From a virus, in the IMG/VR virus record IMGVR_UViG_3300048587_000154, positions 1 to 61,913 of that record: a stretch of 61,913 nt of DNA, one strand, 5' to 3'. Positions within the stretch are counted from its first letter, which is position 1. Each line of letters opens with the position of its first letter. Position numbers and translations under genes: made by a program. Shown in pieces: positions 1 through 61,913 of the stretch. The notes below the pieces were generated by a model. That model was not told the origin of the DNA. It worked only from the letters and a program-made list of their open reading frames with translations, and did no database searches.

Positions 1-127
1 CATCAAGGTCTAGCACCTTTGCCTCAAGCGCGTTTTCGCCCATCGCCTCCTTCTTGGCGAGGATGGTGTTGTAGGTCTCGGTCAGCGTGTCGAGGAGGTC
101 TTGCTGTTCGGATGGCGTCAGCAACAT
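1..127. repeat. Left copy of the 127-bp terminal overlap
   Basis: Bases 1-127 are identical to bases 61787-61913. The length 127 is a common assembler k-mer size, and the reading frame of the giant minus-strand gene continues exactly across the join. The simplest reading is a circular or circularly permuted genome opened inside that gene, not a true direct terminal repeat. The non-redundant genome is then about 61,786 bp. Confidence 0.9.
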
Positions 128-6100: not shown

Positions 6101-7696
6101 CGCACGCGATGCGTCGGTCTCAAGCCCGCGTGCAGATGAGAGCGCGGCAGGCTGGGCTTCTTCCGGCTGCTGAATGACGGTCGGAGCCTCAAGGGCGGGT
6201 TCCTGCGCAACAGGCTGGGCTTCCGGTGCAACGGGTGCCGGTTCTTGTGCAACACCGTACTGCGCGGCGATGGCAATCTCGTCTGGCGTGGCTGGGTCGA
6301 TCGCCTGGCTCACCTCTGCGGCGGCTTCTTCCGGTGACATCGAGTCGATATCGGCGTCGGTCCACAGCATCTTGCGAAGCGTGGCACGGACTTCCGGGGG
6401 GACGCTGGTCGAGGGTGTGGCCGGAGGTGGCATGGAAGGCGCAATGGGCACTGCCGCCTCCTGCTCCACCTCCGGCGCGGCGGGAGCGGCGGCTTCTGGC
6501 GATCCGCGCTCAACCGCATCCGGCTCGGTCGAGGTCTCCAATGGCGCTCGCGCGTAACGCTCGGCAGGGTGCGTCACCACCTGCTGATTGTTAGCGTCCG
6601 CCGCACCGCCCTCGCCCTTGCCGAATATCGCGCGTCCGGTCTTGGACACGACTTGCTCGCCCACCTTCAAGCCACCGCCGACGATGCCGCCGATTGCAGC
6701 CGACTCGGCCACGCCATCCATGATGTCTTGATCGGGCTTGTAGACGTAGCGCGCAATGAGGTTCTGCGCCGCCTGCTGAACGGCTTCCTGACCGCCTTCG
6801 GCTGCCGCCTGTGCAAGCACCTTCCCGACGGCTCCGGCCAACTTGCCGGCGAACGGCAGCGGCACGCGCTCGAACAGCGTTTCGATCGGGATTTGCTCTG
6901 TGAGACCGGGATATCGGCCCAACCTGGCCGCTTGGATGATCTGCTCTTGCGTCGCGCCCTTGGAGATAGCGTCATCGATCTGCTGACCGCCCGTCGCCAG
7001 TGAGCCGCCGACAACGCCGGCAACCGGGCCAAGGCCGGGCACCGCGCCAGCCGCCATGAATGGAACGGTCGAGCCAAGCCCTTCCGAGATCGACCGCGAC
7101 CAAGTGTTCTCATAGTCCTCGGCTGCCGGGAAGTTCTCGGCGGCATAGTCCTGCATCGCCTGCCCTGCTTTGAACAGGGATGTGTCCTGAATTTTCTCCT
7201 CCGGCATGATGTCGGCGTTTTCGCCGAGTCCTGCCAGCGCCTTCACGCCACCATCGACCGTGAGCGTTCCGTTTCGCACCTGCGAAGCGACGGCCAGAAG
7301 AACGATTTCCTTCAAGCCGCGAATGCCCTTGTTGGCCTTGCGCTGCCAGTCCACCCATTCCGTGTTCGTCATGAGCGGGATGCGCTCGAAGTCGGTTACC
7401 AAGCTCTTGACGGCTTCGCGCTCTGCCGGCGAATTGGCCTGTTCCGGGGCAAGACCCTTGACCATGGAGCCGATGGCGTTGATCGCTCCGGCTGCGATGC
7501 CCTTGCCAACTTCGGGGAAGAACGATCCGCCTTCCTCCTCGGCGATCGGCTGGGCCGGCTTTACGCTCGGCGCGGCGTATTTCGCCCATGGGCCTGCGGC
7601 CTTTGCGCCGGGCGTCGGCGACGGGCTGGGCGTAACTGCATCGACCGTAGGGGCTGCATACTTCTCCCACGGGCCACGGATCGCGTTTTCAGCCAT
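1..7696 (-). CDS. Giant polyvalent protein, residues 1 to about 2565 (InPase-like, N6-adenine methyltransferase, SBNO-type helicase)
   Basis: The ATG at 7696 directly follows the TAA of the upstream gene. The frame stays open past base 1 and resumes at 61786, ending at 56316: 4,388 residues in all. The N-terminus has two PWxKYAAP motifs (about residues 9 and 36), then Gly/Ala-rich hydrophobic stretches (about 210-310). Residues 555-690 resemble the inorganic-pyrophosphatase-like domain of phage polyvalent proteins (ENPKGS, PAHYGYI, GADGDHVDVYVG). A methyltransferase has EPTAGNGAL near 1473 and NPPF at 1532-1535. A Strawberry-notch/SF2 helicase has GDQTGIGKG near 1867, DESH at 2022 and MLGRIHRTGQ at 2417. 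Between domains lie long Gly/Ser/Asp/Arg-rich linkers, two of which contain nested genes. By family precedent (N4-type virion giants, DarB-like proteins) it is probably packaged and ejected to protect or modify incoming DNA; that role is inference. Confidence 0.93.
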   Translation of the reverse strand, partial: MAENAIRGPWEKYAAPTVDAVTPSPSPTPGAKAAGPWAKYAAPSVKPAQPIAEEEGGSFFPEVGKGIAAGAINAIGSMVKGLAPEQANSPAEREAVKSLVTDFERIPLMTNTEWVDWQRKANKGIRGLKEIVLLAVASQVRNGTLTVDGGVKALAGLGENADIMPEEKIQDTSLFKAGQAMQDYAAENFPAAEDYENTWSRSISEGLGSTVPFMAAGAVPGLGPVAGVVGGSLATGGQQIDDAISKGATQEQIIQAARLGRYPGLTEQIPIETLFERVPLPFAGKLAGAVGKVLAQAAAEGGQEAVQQAAQNLIARYVYKPDQDIMDGVAESAAIGGIVGGGLKVGEQVVSKTGRAIFGKGEGGAADANNQQVVTHPAERYARAPLETSTEPDAVERGSPEAAAPAAPEVEQEAAVPIAPSMPPPATPSTSVPPEVRATLRKMLWTDADIDSMSPEEAAAEVSQAIDPATPDEIAIAAQYGVAQEPAPVAPEAQPVAQEPALEAPTVIQQPEEAQPAALSSARGLETDASRARPASIETSQDLEAAGQRVAEPSDAQAQAGNYKKAHVRIAGQDITIENPKGSTRRNKNPDGPAWESVLPAHYGYIKKTTGADGDHVDVYVGDNPKSKKIYIVDQRAPTQNGRFDEHKVILGADSIAQARDLYVKAFSDGSGNQRVGAITSVSPKAFRDWIATPKAHRTPYAMGKVKTTQEGWPADAQGRVKRPQSMVEFLAASGGVRDHKGELANMDADKVFVPGVGKLVRANGRSLDQARALLVENGYLQDSEDGELSTSTIDDMLVSLATDIGSRDQFSRNDDDWAQAWREDQSRATDERQHVNARERAMAELRELGIDPDAAGMAEVIDLMTGGMSVDDALERDAMGYDADNPQPEAEATPVIPFFDEVGSDEVHPGAALADGAAARAGSQGSDRSEAQADRQDFRAQAPDGRESGPQGAGQETDGGSARTGTEGGARDTFASDEELAALRSEPAPRADNAEAEIMAERMLAGENGNADAAIATIERRIQTSKDGVVVDGMAFDKRTARLALLKLRARKPETEAGADGKPQTVIPGAERASDATMAQRKADAPLKAAKPQKDVGGLFGDDARQTDLMDLHNQVKAKSTEKPTDRFAGNKIFTTDKVEAARARLRSKLSQLNSGIDPEMLVDGMTIAGAYIESGVKSFADFAKAMTADFGKAIHPYLLSFWEGARNYPGLDATGMTSPKEAARLHADLGKEKTPELGGHEYTDAAFEAAAEKARPEPKAETPATKSGRWTKIGVNARGNTVWEDDKGVRSYTENNVRVTEAVGFVPGGGIQINKEGRSKDYLVADEAKPVEPVKNTPAKEVEKINTPASVVEELRDHLLSPDTRFETINQARRWLADHGWKAKQEEIANKEAEEVIEQAVVLAARDIIKAGKKRGSEVVYDRLVSLYERQPRLATRTSQSVAEQAYSTPMPLAYVVDRLANVAGGKIIYEPTAGNGALLIDTDPETQQVHANELNKDRSAALRNQGFRVTDNDALDMETPHGADRIVGNPPFGAVRKNGESIVFEVGQHRTTAIDQAIVLKALEGMTPDGRAVFIVGSVKDGTEAERSDNYNTSQKRKFYKRLYDSYNVIEHFTVSGQMYQRQGAAWPVDVIVIDGKGKSSLPLPAARVPAYINSWASLKGYLDGSRSSESAADRGEPVSIEGRGEIQNPVGAVEERPAGDSGRSGQDGSRGPVDAAPVGGRQPAPSSLPDDRGQRSPDGLVDGDQGRSGLAGRDDTGGTGERVDAKPRDARVTSEANATGQVPYRPYSREGQSLNTLVPAALGAAMDASLAKIEQTHGDIDAFVAQSLGYDTSELEDVFSAEQIDAIALAIDNVAKGDAFIIGDQTGIGKGRVVAAAIRFAHKRGMVPVFVTEKPDLYGDMYRDLNDIQWPKALGRDPYIFMTNSNTTVPLDDEAVDWLIERDQAKVDGVKAPKKRGQFTKSQSPKDADAQMLAILSGKIKPDVIFTTYDQMNTVKGLETSRRRFMNQIAPRAFLIMDESHNAGGQGEKQRAAKGAPVPRAQKFRQWISVAKAVMYSSATYAKNPTVMDLYSRTDMAKAVNDPKDLPELITKGKVPLQQVVASMLADAGQYARRERSFEGVEYDLDVAEVNYEAYADFANSIRTIFDFDRSIKDFRKEWIEAWLKENGAAMGMDSGIGELAANSTEFASIMHNIINQMLLSIKAKAAVERAKQALADGEKPVITLSFTNESFISDYAADKGLSIGDPINITFADVVQRYLDRTLRITIKDGEDEKDHVFIPITDLPGEFRAGYEAAQTAIEEADLSGLPASPIDYIRHELTKDGHKVAEITGRGTMIDYKTGTLASRPSAERGAEGKRVTIKKFNDGGLDVVILNRSGSTGVSLHASSKYKDRSRRRMVIAQADGNIDTHMQMLGRIHRTGQVIAPAYTQLSADIPAEARPTAVLMKKMASLSANTTASRKSAFTADAVDFMNEYGDLAAVQWARDNAELNDRLGTPVAFNEKGAVSTENPMQRLTGRIMLLTPSEQQDLLDTLTETYNTILAKKEAMGENALEAKVLDLD
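2368..2697 (-). CDS. Nested out-of-frame gene inside the giant gene, 109 aa
   Basis: The ATG at 2697 follows GAAAGGATATCTCG, a good Shine-Dalgarno at proper spacing, and opens 109 codons in a different frame from the surrounding giant gene. The product has normal protein composition (Leu, Ile, Phe, Met, Trp spread through it; ends TPEELVSALMPSRETLE). I translated the giant frame across the same bases and it stays open but is Gly/Arg/Ser/Asp/Pro-rich linker. It sits between the methyltransferase and helicase domains. No family recognised; it looks soluble and helical. It is either a real overlapping gene or the relic of one engulfed by gene fusion. Confidence 0.6.
   Translation of the reverse strand: MAAVVQKVPQTEESRFLSKVEAKFRTLLEQSKNAPQEIADAADRMEAEGLLMQRPSADASPRQAAFQMIGDNEALTDWWMAIRDEAAWQGATTPEELVSALMPSRETLE
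4753..4980 (-). CDS. Nested out-of-frame gene inside the giant gene, 75 aa basic protein
   Basis: The ATG at 4980 is preceded by GAGGTAGGGTCCG, giving a GAGG-type ribosome binding site. The 75-residue product begins MKYTPEQHLRTARQRE and is helical, Lys/Arg/Gln/Ala-rich. It resembles the small 'PEQHLRxA...A.TDP..R' proteins common in alphaproteobacteria; that likeness is from memory. The giant frame is also open here (checked codon by codon, 4742-4980) but reads as low-complexity Gly/Ala/Ser/Asp/Arg linker. This is the second such nested gene in a linker of the same protein. Confidence 0.55.
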   Translation of the reverse strand: MKYTPEQHLRTARQREQEAKAATDPKRKQIAKTSAHKHRMAARAGRKVQAKKQTAEALERAQKAAHATRSPPTKN

Positions 7697-41452: not shown

Positions 41453-42009
41453 GGCAGCCTCTCGTCTTGCGGGCCTTCAACCAGTCCTTCGGGGATCGGC
41501 AGGTTGTATTCCAACGCCTTCTCGATGTACGGCATCAGCCCGCCCTTTTTCATGCACTCTGCCGCCACGTCAGGCCCGCAATGGCTCAAGACTGCCATCT
41601 TGAGCTTCATGCGGTTGCGATGCTCGTCGGTCATTCGACTCGGCGGTCCAAGCTCCTGCTCGTCGCGCCGCCGCCTGGCGGCTTCGGCCTGCCGCTTGGT
41701 CTCCTCGGCGATGATCGGGGCCAGTTCAGCCCGGATCGCCTCGCACAGTTCGGGCGGCTTCGGCGCAAACTTCTTCGAGGAGCCGACGATGGTCCCGTCG
41801 AGGAATTTCAGGATGGCCGCGTGCAGCGCCCATGCTGGGTATTGCTGCAACGGCAGCACGTAGCCGACCATCGAGTTTTCGGCTTCCTTCTGGCTGTCCT
41901 TTCGCACCTCGAACACGGAGAACAGGACTTCCAGTTCTTTCGTGATTTCATCGACGGTGGCCGGCGTCAGGCGCGGGTCGCGGGTCTCGACCTTACTGAT
42001 TTCGCCCAT
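41449..42009 (-). CDS. Replication-associated protein, 186 aa
   Basis: The protein has a helical charged start (MGEISKVETRDPRLTPATVDEITKELEVL), a WALHAAILKFLDG central part and a C-terminal CxxK-type segment (SHCGPDVAAECMKKGG). Genes like this, next to a DnaD/O-like protein, occur in replication modules of alphaproteobacterial phages. Overlaps neighbours by 4-17 bp. A helicase-loader-like role is possible but not established. Confidence 0.65.
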   Translation of the reverse strand: MGEISKVETRDPRLTPATVDEITKELEVLFSVFEVRKDSQKEAENSMVGYVLPLQQYPAWALHAAILKFLDGTIVGSSKKFAPKPPELCEAIRAELAPIIAEETKRQAEAARRRRDEQELGPPSRMTDEHRNRMKLKMAVLSHCGPDVAAECMKKGGLMPYIEKALEYNLPIPEGLVEGPQDERLP

Positions 42010-42301
42010 AGCGGCCTCCGCTCAAGTCTGCCGCCAGCCCGGCCATGCTGACGCCTCGGTTTTGCACCTGCGCCGGCACGTTCTGCCATTCGTCATCCCA
42101 GCATTCTTGGTTGAGCCACGTCGAGGGATGCTTGAAATCGATCCGCTCCGGCTTGTGTTGGATATACGCCTTGATGGCGTTCAGCATCGTTTCCAGCGTC
42201 GTTTTCTTGATCGCCTTGTCGAAGGCCTTTCGGGCGGCTCCCTTAGCGATGCGACGCGGGTACGCGGACCAAAACACGGAAAAAGCCTCGTCCTTTGTCA
42301 T
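41993..42301 (-). CDS. Replication O/DnaD-type C-terminal protein, 102 aa
   Basis: MTKDEAFSVFWSAYPRRIAKGAARKAFDKAIKKTTLETM..., FKHPSTWLNQECWDDEW is the C-terminal module of phage replication initiators, here as a separate small gene. It probably binds the partner 41449-42009 and recruits the host helicase. Family pattern is familiar from O-like proteins; not searched. Confidence 0.78.
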   Translation of the reverse strand: MTKDEAFSVFWSAYPRRIAKGAARKAFDKAIKKTTLETMLNAIKAYIQHKPERIDFKHPSTWLNQECWDDEWQNVPAQVQNRGVSMAGLAADLSGGRYGRNQ

Positions 42302-42864: not shown

Positions 42865-43284
42865 TCATCCCTCATTGACGGGCGTAAGAAAAACCACGCA
42901 TGGAAGCCCGTCGTCCCGCCATGCGTATTTCAGGTCTCGAACGTACTTGTTCGAGTCGTCGGTGATGACGCGGTTCTTTACCAGCGCATCCATGACGGAT
43001 TTGTCGCAGTTGCCGGCGTCGCGCTCGCGCTTGTCCGGGGCGACGAGTCGAACGGTTACACTAACCCGTTCTGGAAGCAATATGCCTGCGGCATTCTTCT
43101 TCATGCCGCGTGTCTGCAAGAAGATCATCCGCTCGGCCTTCTTCTGCCAATCCTCGTAGCGTGATGTCGGAGCGCGCGTGTGTATCCAGCGGAACGGCGG
43201 CGATTTGCTGCGAAAGCTCACATCCTTGAAGCAAGCCGAAAGAGGGATCGGGAATGGAAGCTCAAGGCGCAGTTGATCGGTCAT
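42865..43284 (-). CDS. rusA: RusA-type Holliday-junction resolvase, 139 aa
   Basis: ATG at 43284. The central RDAGNCDKSVMDALVKNRVITDD motif with the invariant Asp residues is the RusA signature, and the C-terminus (DDGLPCVVFLTPVNEG) matches the family length of about 120-140. It resolves branched DNA to allow packaging. It lies between two HNH genes and overlaps the upstream one by 4 bp. Confidence 0.9.
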   Translation of the reverse strand: MTDQLRLELPFPIPLSACFKDVSFRSKSPPFRWIHTRAPTSRYEDWQKKAERMIFLQTRGMKKNAAGILLPERVSVTVRLVAPDKRERDAGNCDKSVMDALVKNRVITDDSNKYVRDLKYAWRDDGLPCVVFLTPVNEG

Positions 43285-43874
43285 GGCGTTGCCTTGTCGA
43301 ATTTGGTCGCGACACGCCGGCACATTTCGATGAACTCTGCCATCGGCAGACTTTGCTTTGCGAAATTAACCTGCTTCGTGACAAGATGAACGTTGCCGGG
43401 AACATACCCGTGAGCGCTGTCGATCCGATCTATGGAAGCGTTTCCACGCCCATGCTTTTCACCTCGGAAAAAATAAAGCGGATCGCCCGTCATGGCGCAT
43501 TTTCCACCCTGATCGTCATACATCTTGGCAACAAATTCGATGGTCAATTTCCATTCGATCCCGCGTCGCTCTGCCTGGGCGACGAAGTTGCGATAGGCGG
43601 TGCCTGTCACGGCTCCGCACCCCCGCCAGCCGGGACTATTCACCCCTCTCGCGACGCCGCGCGCGCATAATTTGCAGGAATTGGCCATTCCTCGCATCAG
43701 AAGCGAGGCCGCTACCTCATCTTCTTGCCCGCAATCACAACGCATGATCCACATCTGGTTACCACGCCGACGGGCTATCTTCTTAACTACGATGCGCGTA
43801 CCAAAGCGATGACCAACATAATCAGCGATCTTGTATTTCGATCGCTCCGGCAACTTCTTGTTAAGCGTTCCCAT
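43281..43874 (-). CDS. HNH endonuclease, 197 aa
   Basis: ATG at 43874 (MGTLNKKLPERSKYKIADYVGHRF). N-terminal CDCGQEDEVAAS...CKLCARG forms a zinc site. Then GGKCAMTGDPL..., SIDRIDSAHGYVPGNVHLVTKQ is a complete HNH domain. It overlaps the MT-A70 end by 14 bp and RusA by 4 bp. A second freestanding homing-type nuclease next to RusA. I rejected the longer start, which overlays the methyltransferase. Confidence 0.88.
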   Translation of the reverse strand: MGTLNKKLPERSKYKIADYVGHRFGTRIVVKKIARRRGNQMWIMRCDCGQEDEVAASLLMRGMANSCKLCARGVARGVNSPGWRGCGAVTGTAYRNFVAQAERRGIEWKLTIEFVAKMYDDQGGKCAMTGDPLYFFRGEKHGRGNASIDRIDSAHGYVPGNVHLVTKQVNFAKQSLPMAEFIEMCRRVATKFDKATP

Positions 43875-44463
43875 CGAATTTACCCGCCTCATTTCCCCAA
43901 GTTGTCCATCCGGCCCTGCTCTGCCGTGAGAAAAGTTCCAGATAAGGACCGTCGCAATATCGCTCCACACGCCTGAAAAATTCATCTGGTTTGCGCGAAT
44001 GCTGCCTGACAGGGGACAGCATGACTTCGGGAACGTCTTTCGCCTTTCGGCGTGCGCTTCCGCGACGCCCCAAGATTGCAAATTCTGCATTTTTTCTTGT
44101 GGTCATTCCTAAGCCCAAATGCAGATCGGTCTCCATCAGCGGGTTGAACGTGGCCGCGTCGAAGTTGCGGCGAAGCTTGATCCAGACAAAGCCCGACGCC
44201 GACGGCTTGAAGCCCCATGCCCGCATGATCGGCAGGTGCGCGCCGATGACCAGCAACGGGCCGGGAACCCACATCATCAGGTGACACGCCTTGTCGGCGA
44301 TCGTCTTGACCGGCATGGCCTCGATTTCCTCAAGGCTCATTGTCTCGTAGTGGCGGTCAGGGTTGCGCACCTCTTTGTGCTCCTTGCGAACACGAAAGCG
44401 CCATGGCGGATCGGCCACGATACACCCGAATTTCTGGCCTTCCAGACTGGAAAAATCGACCAT
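43861..44463 (-). CDS. MT-A70-type N6-adenine DNA methyltransferase, 200 aa
   Basis: ATG at 44463 (MVDFSSLEGQKFGCIVADPPWRF). DPPW is the catalytic motif of the MT-A70/beta adenine methyltransferases, and later GLGMTTRKNAEFAILGRRG is a typical target-binding segment. It transfers a methyl group from S-adenosylmethionine to adenine. It follows the GcrA-like gene by 1 bp, suggesting that the phage methylates DNA and reads the mark with the same operon. Confidence 0.9.
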   Translation of the reverse strand: MVDFSSLEGQKFGCIVADPPWRFRVRKEHKEVRNPDRHYETMSLEEIEAMPVKTIADKACHLMMWVPGPLLVIGAHLPIMRAWGFKPSASGFVWIKLRRNFDAATFNPLMETDLHLGLGMTTRKNAEFAILGRRGSARRKAKDVPEVMLSPVRQHSRKPDEFFRRVERYCDGPYLELFSRQSRAGWTTWGNEAGKFDGNA

Positions 44464-44464
44464 G

Positions 44465-44932
44465 CTATTCCTTGATGCCCCGCAACGCCGCGCGCTCCTG
44501 CGCGGTGCCTTGTCCCTTCGACCAGCCGGCATGTTCACAACAGTAGGACTTGCCCGGCTCGGTCGGATTTCCGCAAAACAGGTATTCGCCGTCAAGCCGG
44601 GTGGTGTCGCCGATCGTGGGAACATCATTGATCGGCCATCGGCATTCGTTGAGTTTTAAGTCAACAAGGCACACCGCGCGGCACTCGAACGTTGTCTGAC
44701 GAACTTTCGGGAGAGGTTTCGGCTCTGGCTCCGGCGCTGATTTCTTCGGAGGATGATTGCGCCGCATCTTCTCGGATGGCCGGTTCTCCCCCAGTTTCAG
44801 GGAGAGGCGTAGGCAGCGGCCCACGACGGCGTTGACGGACCTTCCGACCTTACAGGAAATGGCGCGGGCGGTTAGATCGTCCGCCACCATTTCCCGAAGC
44901 ATTTTATCCTCGGTTTCTGTCCACGCTTTCAC
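44465..44932 (-). CDS. gcrA: GcrA-family cell-cycle regulator, 155 aa
   Basis: Start GTG at 44932. The N-terminal WTETEDKMLREMVADDLTAR, ISCKVGRSVNAVVGRCLRLS matches the GcrA HTH (tests for GANTC methylation state in alphaproteobacteria). The C-terminal ECRWPINDVP..., YLFCGNPTEPGKSYCCEHA carries the conserved Cys/His zinc-like signature. Host GcrA activates cell-cycle genes by binding methylated promoters with sigma-70. A phage copy beside a methyltransferase could steer host or phage transcription. Function by family, target not known. Confidence 0.9.
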   Translation of the reverse strand: MKAWTETEDKMLREMVADDLTARAISCKVGRSVNAVVGRCLRLSLKLGENRPSEKMRRNHPPKKSAPEPEPKPLPKVRQTTFECRAVCLVDLKLNECRWPINDVPTIGDTTRLDGEYLFCGNPTEPGKSYCCEHAGWSKGQGTAQERAALRGIKE

Positions 44933-44950
44933 GTCCCCCGCACCCGAAGC

Positions 44951-45682
44951 TTAGTGAAGCGCTGCCCCGGCATCCTTTTCGGGGTCAAGCTCCGCGCCGG
45001 GGTCTGCTGCATCGAACTCGGCGTGTACTTGGTCTACGTCCTCGCCATCGGCGTCAGGATTTGGCGCGGCTCCGGCCTCCGTGTCCTCGGTATCCGTGTC
45101 AACCACGTCATCCTCGCCGTCCTGTTCGCCCTTGATGAGCGTTTCGTCGCCGACCGCCGCATCCATTTCCAGAATGCGCTTGTACTCATCCATACCGTTT
45201 CGGAAGGCTTCAAGCCAGGCTTGGCCCTGCTTGCTCTCGACGGCGTAGGGGATCGATCCTTCGCCCTCACCGCGTAGCGCCGCCATGCGCCCATTGTGTG
45301 CGGCGGTCTCGATTGCCGGTGTGCGCCCATCGACGTAGGCGAACAGGTCGAGTTGCTTCTTCTCGATCGCAAAGCCCAAGATCGCCAGATATTCGAGGGT
45401 CTTTACCAGTTCGACAACAAGTTCGTCGCGGTCGATGCTCGACTTGATCGCCAGCGCCCGCTTGGCTGCCTTGATGTGCAGGCCCTTGGCCTCGACGTGC
45501 TTCACGACATTGCGATAGCTGCCGGTCTCACTCTCCAACCGGGTCTTGGCGCGCGCCAGCTTGCCAAGCTGGACGGCAGCTATGGCGCGATCTTCCGGGC
45601 CGTTGTGCAGCGGGCCGGGACGATCGCCTTCATCTTCTTCGGGTTGCTGCGCGCGAGCAGCCTTCTTTGGCGCTTTCACCAT
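44951..45682 (-). CDS. GapR/RMF-like protein with acidic tail, 243 aa
   Basis: ATG at 45682. The first 120 residues (RLESETGSYRNVVKHVEAKG..., IKAAKRALAIKSS, VKTLEYLAILGF) resemble GapR/DUF2312-type DNA-binding helices. Then GRMAALRGEGEGSIPYAVES..., WLEAFRNGMDEY resembles ribosome-modulation-factor repeats. The tail is a run of Asp/Glu (DGEDDVVDTDTEDTEAG). The two resemblances are from memory and need a search. It lies 22 bp after the repressor. Confidence 0.65.
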   Translation of the reverse strand: MVKAPKKAARAQQPEEDEGDRPGPLHNGPEDRAIAAVQLGKLARAKTRLESETGSYRNVVKHVEAKGLHIKAAKRALAIKSSIDRDELVVELVKTLEYLAILGFAIEKKQLDLFAYVDGRTPAIETAAHNGRMAALRGEGEGSIPYAVESKQGQAWLEAFRNGMDEYKRILEMDAAVGDETLIKGEQDGEDDVVDTDTEDTEAGAAPNPDADGEDVDQVHAEFDAADPGAELDPEKDAGAALH

Positions 45683-45704
45683 AGGTTTCAGTCTCCGTTG
45701 TGGT

Positions 45705-45971
45705 TTAGGTCGAAAGGTCGTTGCGGATGATGGCAAGGAGCTTGTCCAGCGGCTCATCACCTGTTGCCAGGCTAAGCGCTTCGGAAACCGTGATCTTTCC
45801 AGTCTTGATGAGGAGGAAGATTTTCAGCGCGCCGTCGGCGGTGCGTGTCCCGGCTTCCAGCTTCGATAGCTGGCCCTGTGTGATCCCGCAAAAATCGGCC
45901 ATTTCGCGTTGGCTCATGCCGTTCTGTGTGCGGAACAAGCGGATATCTTCGGAAGTCAGGATTTGTGTCAT
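45705..45971 (-). CDS. XRE-family repressor, 88 aa
   Basis: ATG at 45971 (MTQILTSEDIRLFRTQNGMSQ). REMADFCGITQGQLSKLEAG is a classical HTH_3 recognition helix. The C-terminus (VSEALSLATGDEPLDKLLAII) is short, without a protease or dimer domain. No clear Shine-Dalgarno. Position at the edge of the leftward and rightward operons suggests a lysogeny-type or timing regulator, though no integrase is present. Confidence 0.85.
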   Translation of the reverse strand: MTQILTSEDIRLFRTQNGMSQREMADFCGITQGQLSKLEAGTRTADGALKIFLLIKTGKITVSEALSLATGDEPLDKLLAIIRNDLST

Positions 45972-46357
45972 ACCCAAGCGATGCCGGCAGAATGCGATCT
46001 AGTCAATGCCCTTGGAATGTTCTGCACCGCTGATGCTGACAATCGATCCGGTTTTTTGCTGCTCTACTTCCTTCTTCCTTGGTTCTTAATCCTTAAGGCT
46101 TGACCTTGAGAGGAGGGAAGCGAGGGGGTTAAAGACCCCCTACCCAAGCAGACAAATCAATGTCCACAAGGGGAGGAGGATCGCTTGCACAAACTTGACC
46201 TCTCGTTTCGGTCGCTCGTTCGGCAGGGTGCCTTTCGGAAACCCGTCCTCTGTTTCAGGCTGCACCGTAGGACTTTCGACCCCCGCGCACGCGGCTACGC
46301 CTGCCAGATTTGCACTGGTCTGCCGCACAAAACGAACGGGAGGGGACGCATCGGGAC

Positions 46358-46386
46358 TTGAGGGGACAGTTGGGAGACGCTATGTA
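46358..46386 (+). promoter_or_regulatory. Candidate rightward promoter
   Basis: TTGAGG at 46358-46363, a 17-bp spacer and TATGTA at 46381-46386 form a plausible sigma-70-type promoter. Start point about 46393. It precedes the hairpin at 46436-46462, so its transcript could end early or be antiterminated into the early operon. Confidence 0.5.
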
Positions 46387-46392
46387 TTGGCC

Positions 46393-46473
46393 TCACTGTC
46401 CGATATCGGCTGCGACACCTCTCGGATAGTTCTCACGCCTCGGTCTTTGCAGGACCGGGGCGTTACCTTTTTA
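46393..46473 (+). ncRNA. Candidate short RNA or attenuated leader, about 80 nt
   Basis: The RNA from the promoter at 46358-46386 would end in CGCCTCGGTC-TTTGCAG-GACCGGGGCG (46436-46462, 10-bp stem with one G-U) followed by TTTTT (46468-46472). It contains no open frame of note. It could be a free small RNA, or a leader whose terminator is bypassed to express 46579 onward. Confidence 0.4.
46436..46472 (+). terminator. Intrinsic terminator before the early operon
   Basis: Stem 46436-46445 / 46453-46462, loop TTTGCAG, followed by TTACCTTTTT. It is oriented to stop rightward transcription about 105 bp before the first early gene. That is unusual for a plain operon start and suggests regulation. 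Confidence 0.65.
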
Positions 46474-46510
46474 GAGCGCGACTCCCCGCACATCGTCAAT
46501 CGAAATTATT

Positions 46511-46519
46511 TTTCGTATT
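46511..46519. repeat. TTTCGTATT motif copy upstream of the early operon
   Basis: Exact TTTCGTATT at 46511-46519, extended as TTTCGTATTGCTAT as at 31027. The surrounding CGAAA-TTATT-TTTCG forms a small inverted repeat (46501-46515). It lies about 60 bp before the ATG at 46579. Confidence 0.55.
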
Positions 46520-46578
46520 GCTATCGCGCGATGCCCGTGGCATTGTTCCACACGGCATAGCAACTGGGGAGTTCAAGA

Positions 46579-46983
46579 ATGCCTAAGCAAATGTTCACGC
46601 CACAAGGCCATCTAACCCGCCGCATGAAGCGGTTTTTGAAGCGCGTCGTGGTCGAAAACCATCATCCCGAAACGCCACTTATCCACGGAATTATCAACAG
46701 GCGCGCGGAAATCGTTGCAGCTTGGAAATACTACGCCGTCGGCGGTCGTATCGACATCCACCGCGAGGGTCGCGACTGCGACCATACCGCCTATCATTCG
46801 GTCTACAGCATCGATGTTCCAATCTCTGTTGTCGCTTGGGTGCGCGATGAGGCGGAACATCGTTCATGGCTCGATGGGCCGGAGCGGGTCTGGTTTGCCG
46901 CACCAAGCGGTCTATGCGAAACCGGCAAGAGCATTGCCATTTTCTCGCGTCCCTCATTCGTGCAGGGCGACGGCTGGCGCTGA
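46579..46983 (+). CDS. First gene of the early operon, 134 aa
   Basis: ATG at 46579 after AACTGGGGAGTT-caaga, shared with the leftward operon leader. The basic N-terminus (MPKQMFTPQGHLTRRMKRFLKRVV) is followed by a Trp/His/Arg-rich domain (VWFAAPSGLCETGKSIAIFSRP). No family recognised. It shares its stop with the next start (TGATG). Confidence 0.75.
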   Translation: MPKQMFTPQGHLTRRMKRFLKRVVVENHHPETPLIHGIINRRAEIVAAWKYYAVGGRIDIHREGRDCDHTAYHSVYSIDVPISVVAWVRDEAEHRSWLDGPERVWFAAPSGLCETGKSIAIFSRPSFVQGDGWR

Positions 46984-47357
46984 TGCGTACCTTTACCCCC
47001 GAATACCTGCGGCTGATCGAGTCGCGCGACAAGGCACGGCCTGCCGGCGCTGATTATGGTCTCTCGCGCCCGCATGGTGGGCCGAGCTTCCCGACCATCA
47101 TTGAGGCGCTGGACATGTGGAGCGAGTGGCACGCCGACCACCCCTTTGACGGGTCGCGCGGCAACCTTTTGCTCGATCTGGCGCTGGGCGATGCCTTTCG
47201 TATGTTGATCCAGTTGACCGACAACAAGGCGCGCATGCGTTGGATCGAGCGCCAGATGCCGATCGACCACATGGGGTTGCCGCCCTATCACGCCGCCTTG
47301 GCGCGGTGGTGGATGGCGCTCTACGATTTTCAACAAGGAGACAAGACGAATGGCTAA
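46983..47357 (+). CDS. Hypothetical early protein, 124 aa
   Basis: ATG at 46983 (MRTFTPEYLRLIESRDKARPAG). Helical with a WSEWHADHPF and a WMALYDF at the end. Earlier in-frame start rejected because it overlays the previous gene. It overlaps the next gene by 8 bp. No family recognised. Confidence 0.72.
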   Translation: MRTFTPEYLRLIESRDKARPAGADYGLSRPHGGPSFPTIIEALDMWSEWHADHPFDGSRGNLLLDLALGDAFRMLIQLTDNKARMRWIERQMPIDHMGLPPYHAALARWWMALYDFQQGDKTNG

Positions 47358-56022: not shown

Positions 56023-56322
56023 ATGTTGAAATTTGCCGCCGCATTCTATGCGTTGTTCGTTTGTAGTGCGACCGCCTGCGATATCTTTACTGGGGAAGGC
56101 TCCGAGTTCGTCCCCGGAGCAACGCTTACATGGCATCCCGACGGGATATTCACACTCGCCGACTCGGATGGGTCGAAGGACTATGTTTTCCAGTCCACGG
56201 GAATGACTGATGTTCCCTACTCCATGGGCGTCTCGACCAAGGATAAAAACGATGTCGTCTTGATCCGCGAGCTTGATGGCAAGTGGATCATCGACATGGT
56301 GGTTTTCACCTGCGCTCATTGA
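56023..56322 (+). CDS. Secreted small protein on the plus strand, 99 aa
   Basis: A strong GGAGGAA precedes the ATG. MLKFAAAFYALFVCSATACD is a signal peptide (cleavage near ATA/C, or lipidation at C19). The mature part is a beta-rich domain (GATLTWHPDGIFTLADSDGS, DVVLIRELDGKWIIDMVVF) with two further Cys. It is transcribed against both neighbours and overlaps the end of the giant gene by 7 bp. It may be a lysogenic-conversion or superinfection-exclusion gene; inference. Confidence 0.78.
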   Translation: MLKFAAAFYALFVCSATACDIFTGEGSEFVPGATLTWHPDGIFTLADSDGSKDYVFQSTGMTDVPYSMGVSTKDKNDVVLIRELDGKWIIDMVVFTCAH

Positions 56323-59300
56323 CGGCTGGCCTTGACGTAGGCCTTGCGCGCCTCGCGCATGGCGTCCAACTCGGCCTTTTCCAGTTCATCAAGCCGCTTC
56401 TTCTTCTGCGCCGCCGCCATGCTGTCGTCAGCTTCGAGTCGGCGGCGCTCTTTGTTCAGTGCCTTGCGCTGCTTTTCTGCCGCCTTGAACGCACCTGCCG
56501 CCTCAAGCTCTGCCGTGTGCGACTTCCGATAGGCATCTGCCTTTGCCGTCTGGCCGCTCTCGTTGTAGGTTTTCAGATACCCCTCTGACGCCATGACGGC
56601 CTCGCGCTCGCGGTAGTATTCGGTGCGCTGCGAATTTTCATCAATCTCGCCATAGAAGTTGCGCACCCACGGCGTCTTGCCCGGCTCAAACTCGCCCACA
56701 AGCGCGTTTTCCGCCGTCTGCTCGACACCAGTAACGAAGCGGCCAAGCCCGCCGACGAAGTATCCCCACAGATGCTCCAACGTGTCGGGGTGGATATCGA
56801 CCGCGCCTGGCACCACCTCATCACCGCCGCTTGTCCAGTTGATGAGTTCGGCCAACTTCCTGAATGCCGGGTGCGTGGTCGAGAACGCTTGCGAGCTTTC
56901 CGGCGCTGGCGATCGATCGAACGGATTGCTGTCCGGGTAGATCGGTGATCCCGCGAAGTTCTCGTTGCTGATGATATCAACAGCGGGATCGCCAATAGTC
57001 GGCGTCACCATGGAAGCCATGGAGCCGGAGCCGATCGGGTTGAAGGCGTCGAAAGCAACGCGGATCGCTGACAAGATGCCCGTCATCGGGTCTTGCGCGC
57101 CCGAAGCGATGGCCGCGCCCTGCAAGCCCAAGTGATGGAAGGCGTTGTAGCCATAGGCCATCGGGAACGAAACGTATTTCTCGGTGCCGGGGATGAAGAA
57201 CACATACTGGCGTTCGAGCTTGTAAGGCTCGTTTTTCAGCATCTTCTCATAGTACGACTCGCCGTCGTCATCCGTGCCGGAAAACAGCATGTTCCAAACG
57301 TGCTGCATCATCCCGCCAAATATGAACGTGGCGATCGCCGCGCGCACCGCCTTTGAGCGCACCGCCCTCGATCCGACGTTGTAAGCGCCCTGCGCAGCCG
57401 CGTTGAAGAACACGAACCATGCGTTCATCGCCGGGCCAAGCTCGCCATGCTTCTTGAAGTCCACGGTCAGGTCGCGCGCCATGAACGCGGCTTCCTTGGC
57501 CGTGCGGCCCTGAATGTTGCGGGCTGCCGCATAAGAGGCCAGGCGGATGCCGTTTTCGCCAGCATCGTTCAAATCGCCAACGAATTTGGTGACGGCGCGG
57601 TACGCCGCTTTCATGGGCGTGACGCCGTTGACGGCCTCGGTCATCTGCTTTTGCAGCTTGTGCAGGTTTTCTTCCAGCGTGGCGTAACCGTGGAACGTGA
57701 TCTTGCCGCCTGCCTCGACATACTCTGCGGCCATCTTGTCCCAAACACCGTCGCCAGCCTTCTTGCGCGACAAACGCCACAATGCGCCCATCGCCTGCGG
57801 GATGTTCTTCGTGATGGTGGCGATCTGCTTGACCGAAAAGCCTTCGTCCAGCAGGTGCGTTGTGCCTGTCTGAATGTCCCTGATGATGTTGATCGGGGTG
57901 AAGGCCGGGTTGGCGCGGGTGTTGACGATCGACTGCCACACGGTAAGCGGGCGCACGATCTTGGAGAGTGTTCCCAGTTCGGCCATACCCATCTTGCGCA
58001 GCGCGAGGCCGATCTTCGGATCGCGGAAGCGGATATAGAACGTCCGTCCGCCCACCTTCGCGGCCAACACGTCATCAAGGTTCGAGAACGGGTTGGGCAC
58101 GCGGCGATAGGTGACAAGACCATCCTTGCCGATCACGCGCTTGAACACGTCCGGGGCTTTGGTGATGTCGCCAAGGAACTTGTCATCGCCCGACCAGTAG
58201 ACTTGCGCGATATGCTCGCCTTCCGGGTCGAACTCGTTGATGAAGCGCGCCATGGCCTTGCCGACGGCGTTCTTGTGCTGGCGCAAGATCGATTGCTCGT
58301 TTTGCGTGATCGCATGCGCAAGGATGTTCTCGGCCTCGGAAAAGCGGCCCATGGCAACCTTGAACTCATCACCGCGCACATCGAAGCCGCCAGCGCCGTG
58401 ATTGTGCCAGAAGCCGTCCGATGTCATGCCCTCCATGCCCTTGAGGGGCACGTAGTTCTTCCACTGCGTCGTCAATAGGTCGAAGGTCTCGGCGCTGATG
58501 AGACCGGCCTTGCGCTGGTTCTTCAATTCGGCATCGATCATTTCCCTGATGGAGCCGGCAGCGATGCGCAAGGCGCGGTGCTTTTCCGGGTCGCTGCGGG
58601 CGTCCGCGATGATTTCGCGCACCTGATCGATTGACATGCCGGAAGCGCCGACAACCGACGAGTCGAAGATCGCCCGGTAGAACTGGCTTTCCTGCGGGTG
58701 GCGCATGCCGACGACGCGGTTCCGCTCCTCGGCGTGCAGGGCGTAGAGGTACTTGTGCAAATCCTCCAAGCTCGCGCCACCATCCGCCAGCGCTTTCACT
58801 GCCGGCGCGACATAGGTGTCGTGCATGCGCTCGATCTGCGGCAGCGCCCGATCTTCCATCAGGCGGGCGTTCAGATAGGCGTCGTTCAACTCGGACAGCT
58901 TGTAGCCGCCGCGCTCCTGCATCATGCGCAGCGGGTGAAGATAGTCGATCCACTTGCGGGTCAGGTAATCGCCAAAGCTCTCGCCGTCATCCTTGTGACT
59001 GCGATCCTTGGTCGTTGATATGCCCTTGAGCGTGGCCGTAGTGTTGCGAAGCATTTTGGCAATGCGCTGGCCCACCAATGCGCCAGGCGCTTTGCTCGGC
59101 TCGATCTTCGGCGGCACAAACTCGGCCTTGTCTGGCATCTGCATTTCTGCGGTGATGGAAATACGGTTATCGTCATAGATGACGTAATTGTACGTGCCCT
59201 TGCCGTCTGAACGCGATCCCCGATCGAGATAACGATGGCCGGGGATGCCAGCCGCACGCAAAGCTTCGGATGCGGCGCGATCGTTTGGAACAGTCTCACG

Positions 59301-61913
59301 CGGATTAACCCTTGCCATCAACGATCCGGCAGGAGGGGGGGAGCCAAGATCAACGGTCAAATACTTGTAGAGGCTGGAGAAGGAAACATCCCCCAGCGAT
59401 CCAGACGAAAGCAAATTCGACACGTTGGTTCCGAGTGATTTCAATTTCTCCACAAGGGCGGGTGGCTGCTCGGACATTTTCTTGTCCCAGTCCAGCAATT
59501 CATGATCTTCGGGGAGGTTGACGGTATAGAGCTTGCCGAAGGTCTTGACCTCTCCCTTGCTCCACTCGCGCAACAGCGCTGCGGCGGCACGCAACGTCTT
59601 GAAGTCTCCCCAGCCGGCTTCCTTCTGGAATGATGTCAATTCGCCCGGCGAAAGCTCTGCCGACCTCGCTTGGTTTTCCACCCAGCGCGCCTTGTCGGTC
59701 AGGCTCATCCCGCTATCAAGCGCCTGACGGGCGAAGATCGCGGCTCGTTCCTCGGCATTGGTGTTGGCGATGTCTTTACTGCCAACAGCAATTCGTTTGC
59801 CGTTTACCTCTATCGAAGCATGGCGCGATGCCAGCGTGTCGCGGTAATACTCTGCGACATCGCGCCGGCCAGCGAAGTAGAGACCCCAGCCGAACGACTG
59901 GTTGCCCTCACCTGTACCGATCTTGTCGGTCGAGAAACGGCCAACCTTGTGCGGCGTGCCGTGGTAAGCCGGCTGATAATCGAAATCGCTGTCACGGATC
60001 GGGTTCACAGGCCGGGTTTTCATTTCGCCGCTGCGCGCCTTGTCGAAGATATCTTCGGCGGTGCGGTAGCCGTGACCGGCAAGCAGGTTCTTGGCGCGGC
60101 GGATCGCTGCCCTGATCTTGTCCCACACCCTGCGAAGCCCGATGTGCAGGCCGCGAACTTCGCGATTGTCATCCATGCGGGTCGAGTAGATGGCGAACGC
60201 CTCGGCCTCCAATTCCTTTTGGCTCATCTTTTCCGGGCGGCGGAACGGGTTCGAGGCGACCAACTCGCGCAGGCGGGCGTTCTCGCGCTGCAACAGGAAG
60301 CGCTCGTCCTTGGTCAAGAACAGCGATTGCAGCCGGTGGAAGGCCTCATGATAGGCGGTGCTGTCGTTGAACGTGTCCAGCGCCAGCGCAATGATGTCAA
60401 TCGCCGGATCGTAATAGCCCGCCGCGTTCCTTGGTCCGTCATCCAGATGCGCGCCCCACGCCTTAAGCGCCGGATGATCTGCCGGGATGGGGATCACGTC
60501 ATGCAATTGCGTCTTGATGCCAGCCACACGGGAGACGATTTCAAGCGCCTTGTGAACCTCGGCTTGCGTCCTGACGATTGGCTCCGGCCCGCGATCCGAA
60601 ACGACGGTGCCGTTCGGCTCCTGCCGGATCGACATTTGCCGGGTGTCCTTCTTCGGAAAGACGATCGACTGGGCAAGCTCGGCCTCACCCGGAGCGACCC
60701 AGCGCACGCCAGCGGTTTGCAGGGCTGCGAGGAGCTTCTTGGCGGTGTCGGCGTTGACCGTCGCCTCCATCTGCCCAAAGCGCTCTGTCCATAGGTCGTA
60801 GACCTTGCGCACGGCGTCGTCTGTGACCAGCTTCTTCGCCTTACGGGAAACGCTAAATTCGAAGCCCCTGTAGGTGTTCTCGACTCTCACCGTATCCTTG
60901 TCGTTGACAAGCGTCTTTTCCTCCGACTCGGCAAGGAAGCGCATGGCCTGATCGGCGTTCTGGAAGCGAATGCGCCGCTCGCGCTGCCAATCTCCCAAGT
61001 CGAACACGCGCGGCATGAGAATGCCGGGCTTGATGTTGCCCTGCTTGTCGGTGAACTGGATGATCTGGCCCTTGCCGTTCAGCCCGTCGAAGGCTGCCAA
61101 CAGATTGCCCGTGGCGATGAAACGCTCGGAACGGCCCTCGGTCGCGGCTTTGGTGAACATAGGCTCCAAGGCTTCGAGCTTGTCGTTCCATCCAGCGCCG
61201 CGAAACTGGGTGATGGCTCCGGCGTCCTCGCCTTCCTTCGGCTTTTCGAACGTGATCTGCGAGAATGGCAGAATGATCGTGCGCGAGGAGTCGGGGATCG
61301 CGATTTCAACCGACCATGAGGAGAGCGCCGTCGGGGATTTGGCCTTCTTGCTGGCGCGGATATCCAGCACGATTGCCGGCATTTCCGTATCCCCCACCAA
61401 GATCACCTGCTTGCCGATCGACATCGACCGGATGATGTTCGACCACTTCTGCAACTGCTCACGCGCCTTTGTCTGCGCGTTTTCCTTCGCCTTCGGGTCT
61501 TTGAGGCTGTCCACGGTCCACTTCGCCCAAGCCTCATGCTCGGTGCGCATGCGCTCGATGGTGCGTTCGGCCTTGATTGCGCCGATCCGCTCCAACTGGC
61601 GAAGCGCCTGCGGGAAGTTCCATGTGTCGGGGCGATGACCAAGCGAGTCGGCAACGCGATCCACCACATCACGCGGCTTCATGGCGAGGCCGACGGACTT
61701 GACCGACATACGCTCCATGTTGGCCGAAGCCTCGAACGGCGACGGGCCGAGCGACGGCTTGATTTCGGTCGATCCCAAGCTTTCGGCATCAAGGTCTAGC
61801 ACCTTTGCCTCAAGCGCGTTTTCGCCCATCGCCTCCTTCTTGGCGAGGATGGTGTTGTAGGTCTCGGTCAGCGTGTCGAGGAGGTCTTGCTGTTCGGATG
61901 GCGTCAGCAACAT
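56316..61913 (-). CDS. Giant polyvalent protein, residues about 2524 to 4388 (zincin, ART-like, LPD38-like)
   Basis: Continuation of the gene that starts at 7696. The frame enters from base 1/61786 without a break; the apparent start at 61913 is only the window end. After the helicase C-terminal region, YHEAFHRLQSL places the HExxH zincin at residues 3045-3049. YHGTPHKVGRF (3173) and GQSFGWGLYFAG-like sequence near 3197 match ADP-ribosyltransferase domains of polyvalent proteins. The last 900 residues (MMQERGGYKLSELND..., NPAFTPINIIRDIQTG, FNAAAQGAYNVGSRAV, GYNAFHHLGLQG) fit the LPD38 C-terminus. A charged coiled coil ends it. It would act in the new host cell. Confidence 0.93.
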   Translation of the reverse strand: MLLTPSEQQDLLDTLTETYNTILAKKEAMGENALEAKVLDLDAESLGSTEIKPSLGPSPFEASANMERMSVKSVGLAMKPRDVVDRVADSLGHRPDTWNFPQALRQLERIGAIKAERTIERMRTEHEAWAKWTVDSLKDPKAKENAQTKAREQLQKWSNIIRSMSIGKQVILVGDTEMPAIVLDIRASKKAKSPTALSSWSVEIAIPDSSRTIILPFSQITFEKPKEGEDAGAITQFRGAGWNDKLEALEPMFTKAATEGRSERFIATGNLLAAFDGLNGKGQIIQFTDKQGNIKPGILMPRVFDLGDWQRERRIRFQNADQAMRFLAESEEKTLVNDKDTVRVENTYRGFEFSVSRKAKKLVTDDAVRKVYDLWTERFGQMEATVNADTAKKLLAALQTAGVRWVAPGEAELAQSIVFPKKDTRQMSIRQEPNGTVVSDRGPEPIVRTQAEVHKALEIVSRVAGIKTQLHDVIPIPADHPALKAWGAHLDDGPRNAAGYYDPAIDIIALALDTFNDSTAYHEAFHRLQSLFLTKDERFLLQRENARLRELVASNPFRRPEKMSQKELEAEAFAIYSTRMDDNREVRGLHIGLRRVWDKIRAAIRRAKNLLAGHGYRTAEDIFDKARSGEMKTRPVNPIRDSDFDYQPAYHGTPHKVGRFSTDKIGTGEGNQSFGWGLYFAGRRDVAEYYRDTLASRHASIEVNGKRIAVGSKDIANTNAEERAAIFARQALDSGMSLTDKARWVENQARSAELSPGELTSFQKEAGWGDFKTLRAAAALLREWSKGEVKTFGKLYTVNLPEDHELLDWDKKMSEQPPALVEKLKSLGTNVSNLLSSGSLGDVSFSSLYKYLTVDLGSPPPAGSLMARVNPRETVPNDRAASEALRAAGIPGHRYLDRGSRSDGKGTYNYVIYDDNRISITAEMQMPDKAEFVPPKIEPSKAPGALVGQRIAKMLRNTTATLKGISTTKDRSHKDDGESFGDYLTRKWIDYLHPLRMMQERGGYKLSELNDAYLNARLMEDRALPQIERMHDTYVAPAVKALADGGASLEDLHKYLYALHAEERNRVVGMRHPQESQFYRAIFDSSVVGASGMSIDQVREIIADARSDPEKHRALRIAAGSIREMIDAELKNQRKAGLISAETFDLLTTQWKNYVPLKGMEGMTSDGFWHNHGAGGFDVRGDEFKVAMGRFSEAENILAHAITQNEQSILRQHKNAVGKAMARFINEFDPEGEHIAQVYWSGDDKFLGDITKAPDVFKRVIGKDGLVTYRRVPNPFSNLDDVLAAKVGGRTFYIRFRDPKIGLALRKMGMAELGTLSKIVRPLTVWQSIVNTRANPAFTPINIIRDIQTGTTHLLDEGFSVKQIATITKNIPQAMGALWRLSRKKAGDGVWDKMAAEYVEAGGKITFHGYATLEENLHKLQKQMTEAVNGVTPMKAAYRAVTKFVGDLNDAGENGIRLASYAAARNIQGRTAKEAAFMARDLTVDFKKHGELGPAMNAWFVFFNAAAQGAYNVGSRAVRSKAVRAAIATFIFGGMMQHVWNMLFSGTDDDGESYYEKMLKNEPYKLERQYVFFIPGTEKYVSFPMAYGYNAFHHLGLQGAAIASGAQDPMTGILSAIRVAFDAFNPIGSGSMASMVTPTIGDPAVDIISNENFAGSPIYPDSNPFDRSPAPESSQAFSTTHPAFRKLAELINWTSGGDEVVPGAVDIHPDTLEHLWGYFVGGLGRFVTGVEQTAENALVGEFEPGKTPWVRNFYGEIDENSQRTEYYREREAVMASEGYLKTYNESGQTAKADAYRKSHTAELEAAGAFKAAEKQRKALNKERRRLEADDSMAAAQKKKRLDELEKAELDAMREARKAYVKASRQ
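61787..61913. repeat. Right copy of the 127-bp terminal overlap
   Basis: Identical to bases 1-127. See the left copy. Confidence 0.9.

What the first reader, a model, noticed from the sequence alone, without database searches (positions are those of the whole stretch)
43861..44932. GcrA-family regulator directly followed by an adenine methyltransferase
In alphaproteobacteria GcrA reads N6-adenine methylation at GANTC sites. A phage that carries a GcrA-like reader, a methyltransferase writer next to it, and a second methyltransferase in the giant protein may shape host cell-cycle transcription or time its own promoters by methylation.
Basis: partly seen in the sequence, partly recalled or inferred. 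Interest (0 to 1): 0.7.

Follow-up and report, generated by a model that had tools for sequence, protein, structure and literature searches.

The report
Phage GcrA-like regulator beside MT-A70 methyltransferase
[quoted passage not shown] this pairing recurs across many unrelated phages, but nothing in the sequence shows that the enzyme writes the GANTC mark that GcrA is known to read.

Summary
gcrA (44465-44932, -) has both GcrA domains by profile and predicted fold. One base downstream lies an intact MT-A70 gene (43861-44463, DPPW). A DarB-like giant protein (4388 aa across the circular junction) carries another, sub-threshold N6-MTase segment.

The pairing is more than chance. Among 67 independent phage gcrA groups, MT-A70 is the commonest neighbour family (13 within five genes, 7 adjacent). 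In records holding both genes, 15 of 16 lie within about 1.5 kb, allowing circularity. On the MT-A70 tree the pairing is scattered, so it was assembled repeatedly. Most gcrA phages lack MT-A70 and vice versa, so it is not obligate.

The enzyme is neither CcrM-like nor like the phage GANTC enzymes of phiLM21. The genome has no GAWTC site (62 expected) and only 54 GASTC sites, not enriched between genes. This GcrA also lost a near-invariant recognition-helix arginine (R33 to V).

Best reading: an early-operon host-takeover module, in which a GcrA-like sigma-70 cofactor is co-expressed with an orphan adenine MTase. Direct epigenetic coupling, or a GcrA-MT-A70 holoenzyme, remain open. Phage gcrA and phage orphan MTases are known; the recurrent pair is not described in the library searched.

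The parts
44465..44932 (-). gcrA-like gene (GTG start), 155 aa: Myb/homeodomain-like HTH (res. 1-45), linker, cysteine-rich sigma-interacting-type domain (res. ~84-140)
   Evidence: PF07750 E 9e-16; PDB GcrA 7ye1/5yix/5yiu by sequence; AF model matches 5yiv and 5yix
43861..44463 (-). MT-A70 family adenine methyltransferase, 200 aa, DPPW motif intact
   Evidence: PF05063 E 6.9e-26; PHROG 359 DNA methyltransferase E 4e-60; AF model Z ~17-19 to MTA1 and METTL3
43281..43874 (-). HNH/endonuclease VII-like gene overlapping the MTase 3' end; same operon
   Evidence: PHROG 3322/1035; overlap
42865..43284 (-). RusA-like Holliday junction resolvase
   Evidence: PHROG 34 E 1.3e-14
41993..42301 (-). replication-initiation-protein-like gene
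   Evidence: PHROG 270 E 2.9e-23
44951..45682 (-). unknown acidic protein upstream of gcrA
   Evidence: no PHROG; sub-threshold RMF hit
45705..45971 (-). HTH_3 (Cro/XRE-like) regulator, first gene of the leftward operon
   Evidence: PF01381 E 4e-9
45972..46578 (.). divergent intergenic control region with a terminator-like hairpin at 46435-46463 and one GASTC site at 46480
1..7696 (-). upstream (N-terminal) part of the 4388-aa polyvalent protein: InPase, N6_Mtase-like (NPPF), AAA_34 and Helicase_C_4 (Strawberry notch)
56316..61913 (-). C-terminal part of the same polyvalent protein (LPD38, weak ART-PolyVal)

Best explanation
An early-operon host-takeover and modification module. Inferred: the GcrA-like protein is made early, binds region 2 of the host sigma-70 through its C-terminal domain and DNA through its Myb-like HTH, and biases host RNA polymerase toward a subset of promoters, phage or host. 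The co-translated MT-A70 enzyme puts N6-methyladenine on phage nucleic acid (most likely DNA, as an orphan anti-restriction or marking enzyme) while the replication genes of the same operon work. The two genes are kept together because both are wanted at the same early time, not because one strictly needs the other. Shown: gene identity, both GcrA domains, intact catalytic motif, operon layout, recurrent same-strand pairing. Inferred: sigma binding, methylation of DNA, timing.
For: Both proteins are intact family members. Genes are 1 nt apart in an operon with RusA, HNH and replication genes. In a set of 80 phage gcrA loci found by GcrA alone (67 groups), MT-A70 is the commonest neighbour (13 groups within 5 genes, 7 adjacent; next 8 and 7). 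Reciprocally, gcrA is the top neighbour of MT-A70 (15 of 84 groups) beside DnaB-like helicase (14) and a resolvase-like family (12). In records with both genes 15 of 16 lie within about 1.5 kb, counting one across record ends. The pairing is scattered over the MT-A70 tree (21 changes for 23 linked rows; at least 10 forced by well-supported branches). Only 16 of 50 gcrA records have MT-A70 and only 4 of 80 MT-A70 loci in bacterial genomes have gcrA nearby, so neither needs the other.
Against: Repeated adjacency in both gene orders, sometimes with overlapping stop/start codons (L004, L030, L158), is what a direct partnership would also give. No promoter was recognised. The GcrA here departs from the family at R33, G102, P104, A138 and Y139, so it may no longer bind sigma or DNA as Caulobacter GcrA does. 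No host is known, only inferred: relatives of the MTase sit mainly in alphaproteobacterial genomes.
Confidence: 0.48

Rival explanations
1. Reader-writer pair: the MT-A70 enzyme writes m6A at a motif in phage or host promoters, and the phage GcrA reads it and recruits sigma-70 RNA polymerase, timing phage genes or host cell-cycle genes.
For: Recurrent, repeatedly assembled pairing; Caulobacter GcrA binds methylated GANTC and RNA polymerase (PMC3667746, PMC7403470); alphaproteobacterial phages carry GANTC methyltransferases in their replication modules (PMC5537653).
Against: The enzyme is not related to the proven phage GANTC enzyme p027 or to CcrM; GAWTC is absent and GASTC is not enriched between genes; R33 lost; most gcrA phages lack MT-A70. 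A host CcrM would already supply GANTC methylation.
Confidence: 0.2
2. Holoenzyme: the GcrA-like protein is the nucleic-acid-binding subunit that gives the MT-A70 catalytic subunit its activity or target, as PNB-2 does for phage M.EcoPA8 and (from general knowledge, not checked here) accessory DNA-binding subunits do in ciliate MTA1c.
For: A phage MT-A70 enzyme needs a winged-HTH partner encoded directly upstream (PMC10810198). The model's best structural match is MTA1 of the multi-subunit MTA1c complex. gcrA is the immediate upstream neighbour in 10 of 92 MT-A70 loci with a close upstream gene.
Against: In most MT-A70 loci the upstream gene is something else (weakly RHH-like, RusA, VRR-NUC, unknown). 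No gcrA-MT-A70 fusion ORF was found. Gene order is not fixed.
Confidence: 0.12
3. The MT-A70 enzyme methylates RNA (for example 16S rRNA), not DNA, and has no link to GcrA beyond the operon.
For: A prophage MT-A70 enzyme with its partner prefers 16S rRNA (PMC10810198); the model is equally close to METTL3, an mRNA enzyme.
Against: PHROG and PADLOC relatives are annotated as DNA methyltransferases (annotation, not proof); the top structural match, tied with METTL3, is the ciliate DNA enzyme MTA1.
Confidence: 0.12
4. Chance neighbours: both are common accessory genes of the early or replication region, shuffled together by mosaicism.
For: DnaB-like helicase and resolvase families are near MT-A70 almost as often as gcrA is; linkage is no more clustered on the tree than in shuffles; the nearest capsid relatives (G085, G088) have no match to either family.
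Against: In records with both genes 8 of 10 coarse families lie within 1.7 kb; p about 8e-5 even if placement is confined so that 20% of places count as near.
Confidence: 0.08

Closest known systems
Caulobacter crescentus GcrA / CcrM circuit
   Same: Two-domain GcrA (HTH + SID) with matching predicted folds; an adenine methyltransferase accompanies it.
   Different: The partner enzyme is MT-A70, not CcrM; it is adjacent; the GcrA is far below the equivalog cut-off (35.7 vs 280 bits) and lacks R33; GAWTC sites are absent.
phiCbK-like phage GcrA homologues (gp222; PMC3556154) and Agrobacterium phage Atu_ph08 (gp5 GcrA plus DarB-like protein; PMC6630229)
   Same: Phage-encoded PF07750 protein; Atu_ph08 also has a DarB-like giant with methyltransferase and helicase domains.
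   Different: An adjacent MT-A70 gene is not mentioned in the passages read.
phiLM21-type phage GANTC methyltransferases (PMC5537653)
   Same: Small orphan m6A enzyme in the replication module of alphaproteobacterial phages.
   Different: NPPW/F/Y type, proven GANTC specificity; no detectable similarity between p027 and this enzyme, and no gcrA found in the first 50 kb of the phiLM21 record.
Phage MT-A70 enzyme M.EcoPA8orf6770P with PNB-2 (PMC10810198)
   Same: Phage MT-A70 (DPPW) directly downstream of a small nucleic-acid-binding protein gene.
   Different: PNB-2 has a predicted winged HTH and steers the enzyme to 16S rRNA; here the upstream protein is GcrA-family.
Ciliate MTA1c / human METTL3-METTL14
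   Same: Same catalytic fold (Z 17-19).
   Different: Eukaryotic multi-subunit complexes; catalytic relationship only.

Membership tests
GcrA family (PF07750) | Profile match over both domains above curated cut-off | tested here: met
   59.1 vs 26.9 bits, residues 3-139
GcrA family (PF07750) | DBD fold and SID fold | tested here: met
   5yiv Z 6.7 (0.8 A over 44); 5yix Z 5.2 (3.0 A over 48, weaker)
GcrA family (PF07750) | Invariant C-x-W-P ... C ... Y-C-x-x-H of the SID | tested here: met
   C97, W99, P100, C120, Y130, C131, H134 kept
GcrA family (PF07750) | Basic residue at HTH position 33 (R in 33, K in 2 of 35 homologues); a conserved trait seen here, not a published criterion | tested here: inconclusive
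   V33 in the alignment; the gap nearby leaves a register shift (R31) possible
GcrA orthologue (NCBIfam sig70cofacGcrA equivalog) | Score above equivalog cut-off 280 | tested here: not met
   35.7 bits
GcrA family (PF07750) | m6A-GANTC-dependent DNA binding and sigma-70 region 2 binding | not testable with these tools
   needs EMSA, pull-down, transcription assay
MT-A70 methyltransferase | Profile, DPPW motif, METTL3-like fold | tested here: met
   PF05063 E 6.9e-26; DPPW; Z 17-19 to METTL3 and MTA1
CcrM / N6_N4_Mtase (PF01555) | PF01555 profile | tested here: not met
   only PF05063 found at E 0.01
phiLM21-type phage GANTC methyltransferase | Homology to p027 (NPPF) | tested here: not met
   no hit of p027 to the MT-A70 profile; BLAST only chance segments
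GANTC-specific writer | Methylates GANTC | not testable with these tools
   indirect only: GAWTC 0 of 62 expected, GASTC 54
DarB-like polyvalent protein | MTase plus Strawberry-notch helicase in one giant protein | tested here: inconclusive
   AAA_34 and Helicase_C_4 above cut-off, LPD38 above cut-off; N6_Mtase 19.4 vs cut-off 20.4 bits, with NPPF
DarB-like polyvalent protein | Packaged in the virion and injected | not testable with these tools
   needs virion proteomics

The most novel reading that the evidence does not exclude
Phages have many times independently assembled their own two-gene epigenetic device, with an MT-A70 enzyme writing m6A at a phage-chosen motif and a GcrA-family sigma-70 cofactor either reading that mark or steering the enzyme, so that transcription of phage (or host cell-cycle) genes is tied to phage DNA modification.
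Probability: 0.22. Interest if true: 0.85.

Novelty: new variant of a known kind. Interest (0 to 1): 0.47.

Why it matters
Phage GcrA homologues have been noted since phiCbK, with function only speculated; phage orphan methyltransferases are usually filed as anti-restriction. A recurrent, repeatedly assembled gcrA/MT-A70 operon gives a concrete, cloneable two-gene unit with which to test whether phages run their own methylation-dependent transcription, and whether GcrA-family proteins can work with marks other than CcrM's GANTC.

Tried and rejected
(1) GANTC as the phage's own mark: rejected as unsupported (no GAWTC, no intergenic enrichment, unrelated enzyme family). (2) Fusion of GcrA and MT-A70 as Rosetta stone: none found in 14,901 ORFs. 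(3) gcrA proteins next to MT-A70 being more divergent than others: the apparent difference is a selection effect of the search pattern that brought in the unlinked set, so no claim. (4) Enrichment of CGAGTCG (32 vs 10-13 expected) as a GcrA motif: it ranks only about 20th among 5,476 7-mers and is not enriched in other GcrA phages, so not used. (5) TCGA methylation as protector of GANTC: flanks outside C..G show no strong T/A preference and SalI/XhoI sites (which contain TCGA) are themselves avoided. (6) Promoter scan of 43000-47400: no sigma-70 consensus site. (7) Profile scan with the diverse GcrA alignment failed for lack of a conserved stretch. (8) The 2018 GcrA structure paper, which would name DNA- and sigma-contacting residues, is not held. 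(9) Upstream neighbours of MT-A70 as general HTH partners: mixed, no consistent pattern.

Full report
What is there. The window is a virus record of 61,913 bases with an exact 127-bp direct repeat at its ends (1-127 = 61787-61913), so it closes to a 61,786-bp circle. At 44465-44932 on the minus strand lies a 155-aa GcrA-family protein (PF07750, E 9.1e-16, both domains). One base after its stop codon starts the ATG of a 200-aa MT-A70 methyltransferase (44463-43861; PF05063, E 6.9e-26). The enzyme belongs to the MT-A70 (METTL3-like) family with an intact DPPW motif, not to the CcrM (PF01555) family.

Surroundings. The pair sits in a leftward early operon: HTH_3 regulator, unknown acidic protein, gcrA, MT-A70, endonuclease VII/HNH-like protein (its start overlaps the MTase end), RusA-like resolvase, HNH, replication-initiation-like protein. 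A divergent rightward operon starts about 600 bp away and carries exonuclease and RecT-like genes. Its upstream half has an inorganic-pyrophosphatase domain, a Strawberry-notch helicase and an N6_Mtase match just below cut-off with an NPPF motif; its end carries LPD38. This is most likely a DarB-like polyvalent protein, as also reported in the GcrA-carrying Agrobacterium phage Atu_ph08 (PMC6630229).

Structure. AlphaFold models from alignments of locus proteins give a GcrA with a confident HTH that superposes on Caulobacter GcrA-DBD bound to methylated DNA (5yiv, Z 6.7, 0.8 A over 44 residues), and a C-terminal part that aligns, more weakly, to the sigma-interacting domain (5yix, Z 5.2, 3.0 A over 48). 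The methyltransferase model matches ciliate MTA1 and human METTL3 at Z 17-19. In an alignment of 36 phage GcrAs the window protein keeps the invariant C97, W99, P100, C120, Y130, C131, H134 and R42. It has V at position 33, where 33 of 35 others have R and 2 have K, and it departs at G102, P104, A138 and Y/F139. It scores 35.7 against the orthologue cut-off of 280. It is a family member, but a divergent one. A local register shift (R31 taking the place of R33) cannot be excluded.

Is the pairing more than chance? A scan of IMG/VR keyed on GcrA alone gave 80 phage loci, 67 independent groups at 80% identity. MT-A70 is the single most frequent neighbour family: 13 groups within five genes, 7 adjacent. 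The next families reach 8 and 7. Of 50 of these records searched whole, 16 hold an MT-A70; in 14 the two genes lie within about 1.5 kb, in a fifteenth they face each other across the record ends, and in one they are 10 kb apart. Collapsed to 10 coarse families, 8 are near without using circularity; the chance of this is about 8e-5 even if a fifth of the possible places counted as near. The reverse scan keyed on MT-A70 gave gcrA as the top neighbour (15 of 84 groups), level with DnaB-like helicase (14) and a resolvase-like family (12). On a tree of 102 MT-A70 proteins the pairing is scattered: 21 changes for 23 linked rows, at least 10 forced by well-supported branches, no clustering beyond shuffles. 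So the pair has been put together repeatedly within a replication/early module rather than inherited as one cassette. Gene order varies. In L004, L030 and L158 the stop and start codons overlap. No fusion protein was found. The nearest relatives by capsid protein gave no match to either family (the MT-A70 search had no positive control in that run), so the pair is accessory. Relatives of the enzyme in bacterial genomes are mostly alphaproteobacterial, but only 4 of 80 have gcrA within about 5 kb.

Does the GANTC idea hold? Proven phage GANTC enzymes in this host group are of the NPPW/F/Y type (PMC5537653); the phiLM21 enzyme shows no similarity to this one. The window genome contains no GAATC or GATTC at all (62 expected by Markov, about 70 by synonymous-codon shuffling), whereas GACTC/GAGTC sites are near expectation (54 vs 70). 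Only 3 of the 54 lie in called intergenic sequence, which is 4% of the genome; a fourth, at 46480, lies in the divergent control region inside a doubtful 37-aa ORF. GANTC is also depleted in other GcrA phages (GAWTC 455 vs 829) and less so in the MT-A70-centred set (832 vs 1030). It is known to be depleted in alphaproteobacterial genomes (PMC3973325). The window is the extreme of that trend, together with complete avoidance of CTSAG and of several six-base palindromes, which looks like restriction avoidance. If the phage enzyme protected GANTC there would be little reason to purge half of these sites; this is an inference, not a proof.

Mechanism. I commit to an early host-takeover and modification module (0.48): a GcrA-like sigma-70 cofactor is co-expressed with an orphan MT-A70 methyltransferase that modifies phage nucleic acid, the two being co-selected for timing. 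Shown: identity, domains, catalytic motif, operon, recurrent pairing. Inferred: sigma binding, DNA as substrate, timing. Rivals: reader-writer (0.20), GcrA as targeting subunit of the MT-A70 enzyme (0.12; precedent PNB-2 in PMC10810198), RNA as substrate (0.12), chance (0.08). Against any obligate partnership: about two thirds of gcrA records lack MT-A70 and most MT-A70 loci lack gcrA. For some partnership: repeated, same-strand, often overlapping assembly.

Novelty. Phage GcrA homologues (PMC3556154, PMC6630229) and phage orphan methyltransferases, even CcrM mimics (PMC5537653), are known. No paper in the searched library holds both 'GcrA' and 'MT-A70', and the recurrent pair appears not to have been described there. 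I rate it a new variant of a known kind, interest 0.47, with a reader-writer or holoenzyme reading at 0.22 that would deserve 0.85.

Noticed in passing
window 1-61786 (whole genome): Complete absence of GAWTC (0; 62 expected) and CTSAG (0; 57 expected), and of GGCGCC, CTCGAG, CCGCGG, CTGCAG, CCCGGG, CACGTG, GAATTC; GATC is not avoided. Extreme restriction-site avoidance; its nearest relatives by capsid show it only partly or not.
   Followed up: partly
window, 32 sites such as 6341, 11142, 61644: GASTC survives mostly in the context CGASTCG (32 of 54; 10-13 expected), which matches the YGAKTCG motif of Caulobacter GcrA-activated promoters but lies mostly inside genes; rank about 20 of 5,476 7-mers.
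   Followed up: partly
L044-L203 pooled: CGATTCG/CGAATCG is strongly depleted in GcrA-carrying phages (31 vs 103) but not in MT-A70-only phages (82 vs 98); may reflect host range.
   Followed up: no
L125, L126, L128, L141, L145: A clade of MT-A70 proteins near gcrA with DPPT in place of DPPW; other phage MT-A70 proteins show DPAW, DPAT, DPPL: possibly non-catalytic, METTL14-like members.
   Followed up: no
window 46435-46463 (+): Strong terminator-like hairpin (13 pairs, T run) in the divergent intergenic region upstream of the rightward operon; possible attenuator.
   Followed up: no
window 47350-49811 (+): Exonuclease and RecT/single-strand annealing genes, a recombination pair opposite the gcrA operon.
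   Followed up: no
L219 (Synechococcus phage Ssp-JY42), L292 (contig titled Burkholderiales): gcrA homologues in a phage recorded from Synechococcus and in a contig binned as Burkholderiales, outside the usual alphaproteobacterial range; host labels or binning may be wrong.
   Followed up: no
L220 (Rhizobium phage RHph_Y1_10): A cultured rhizobial phage with gcrA, RusA, a replication gene and a DNA methylase gene in one stretch; that methylase is not MT-A70.
   Followed up: partly
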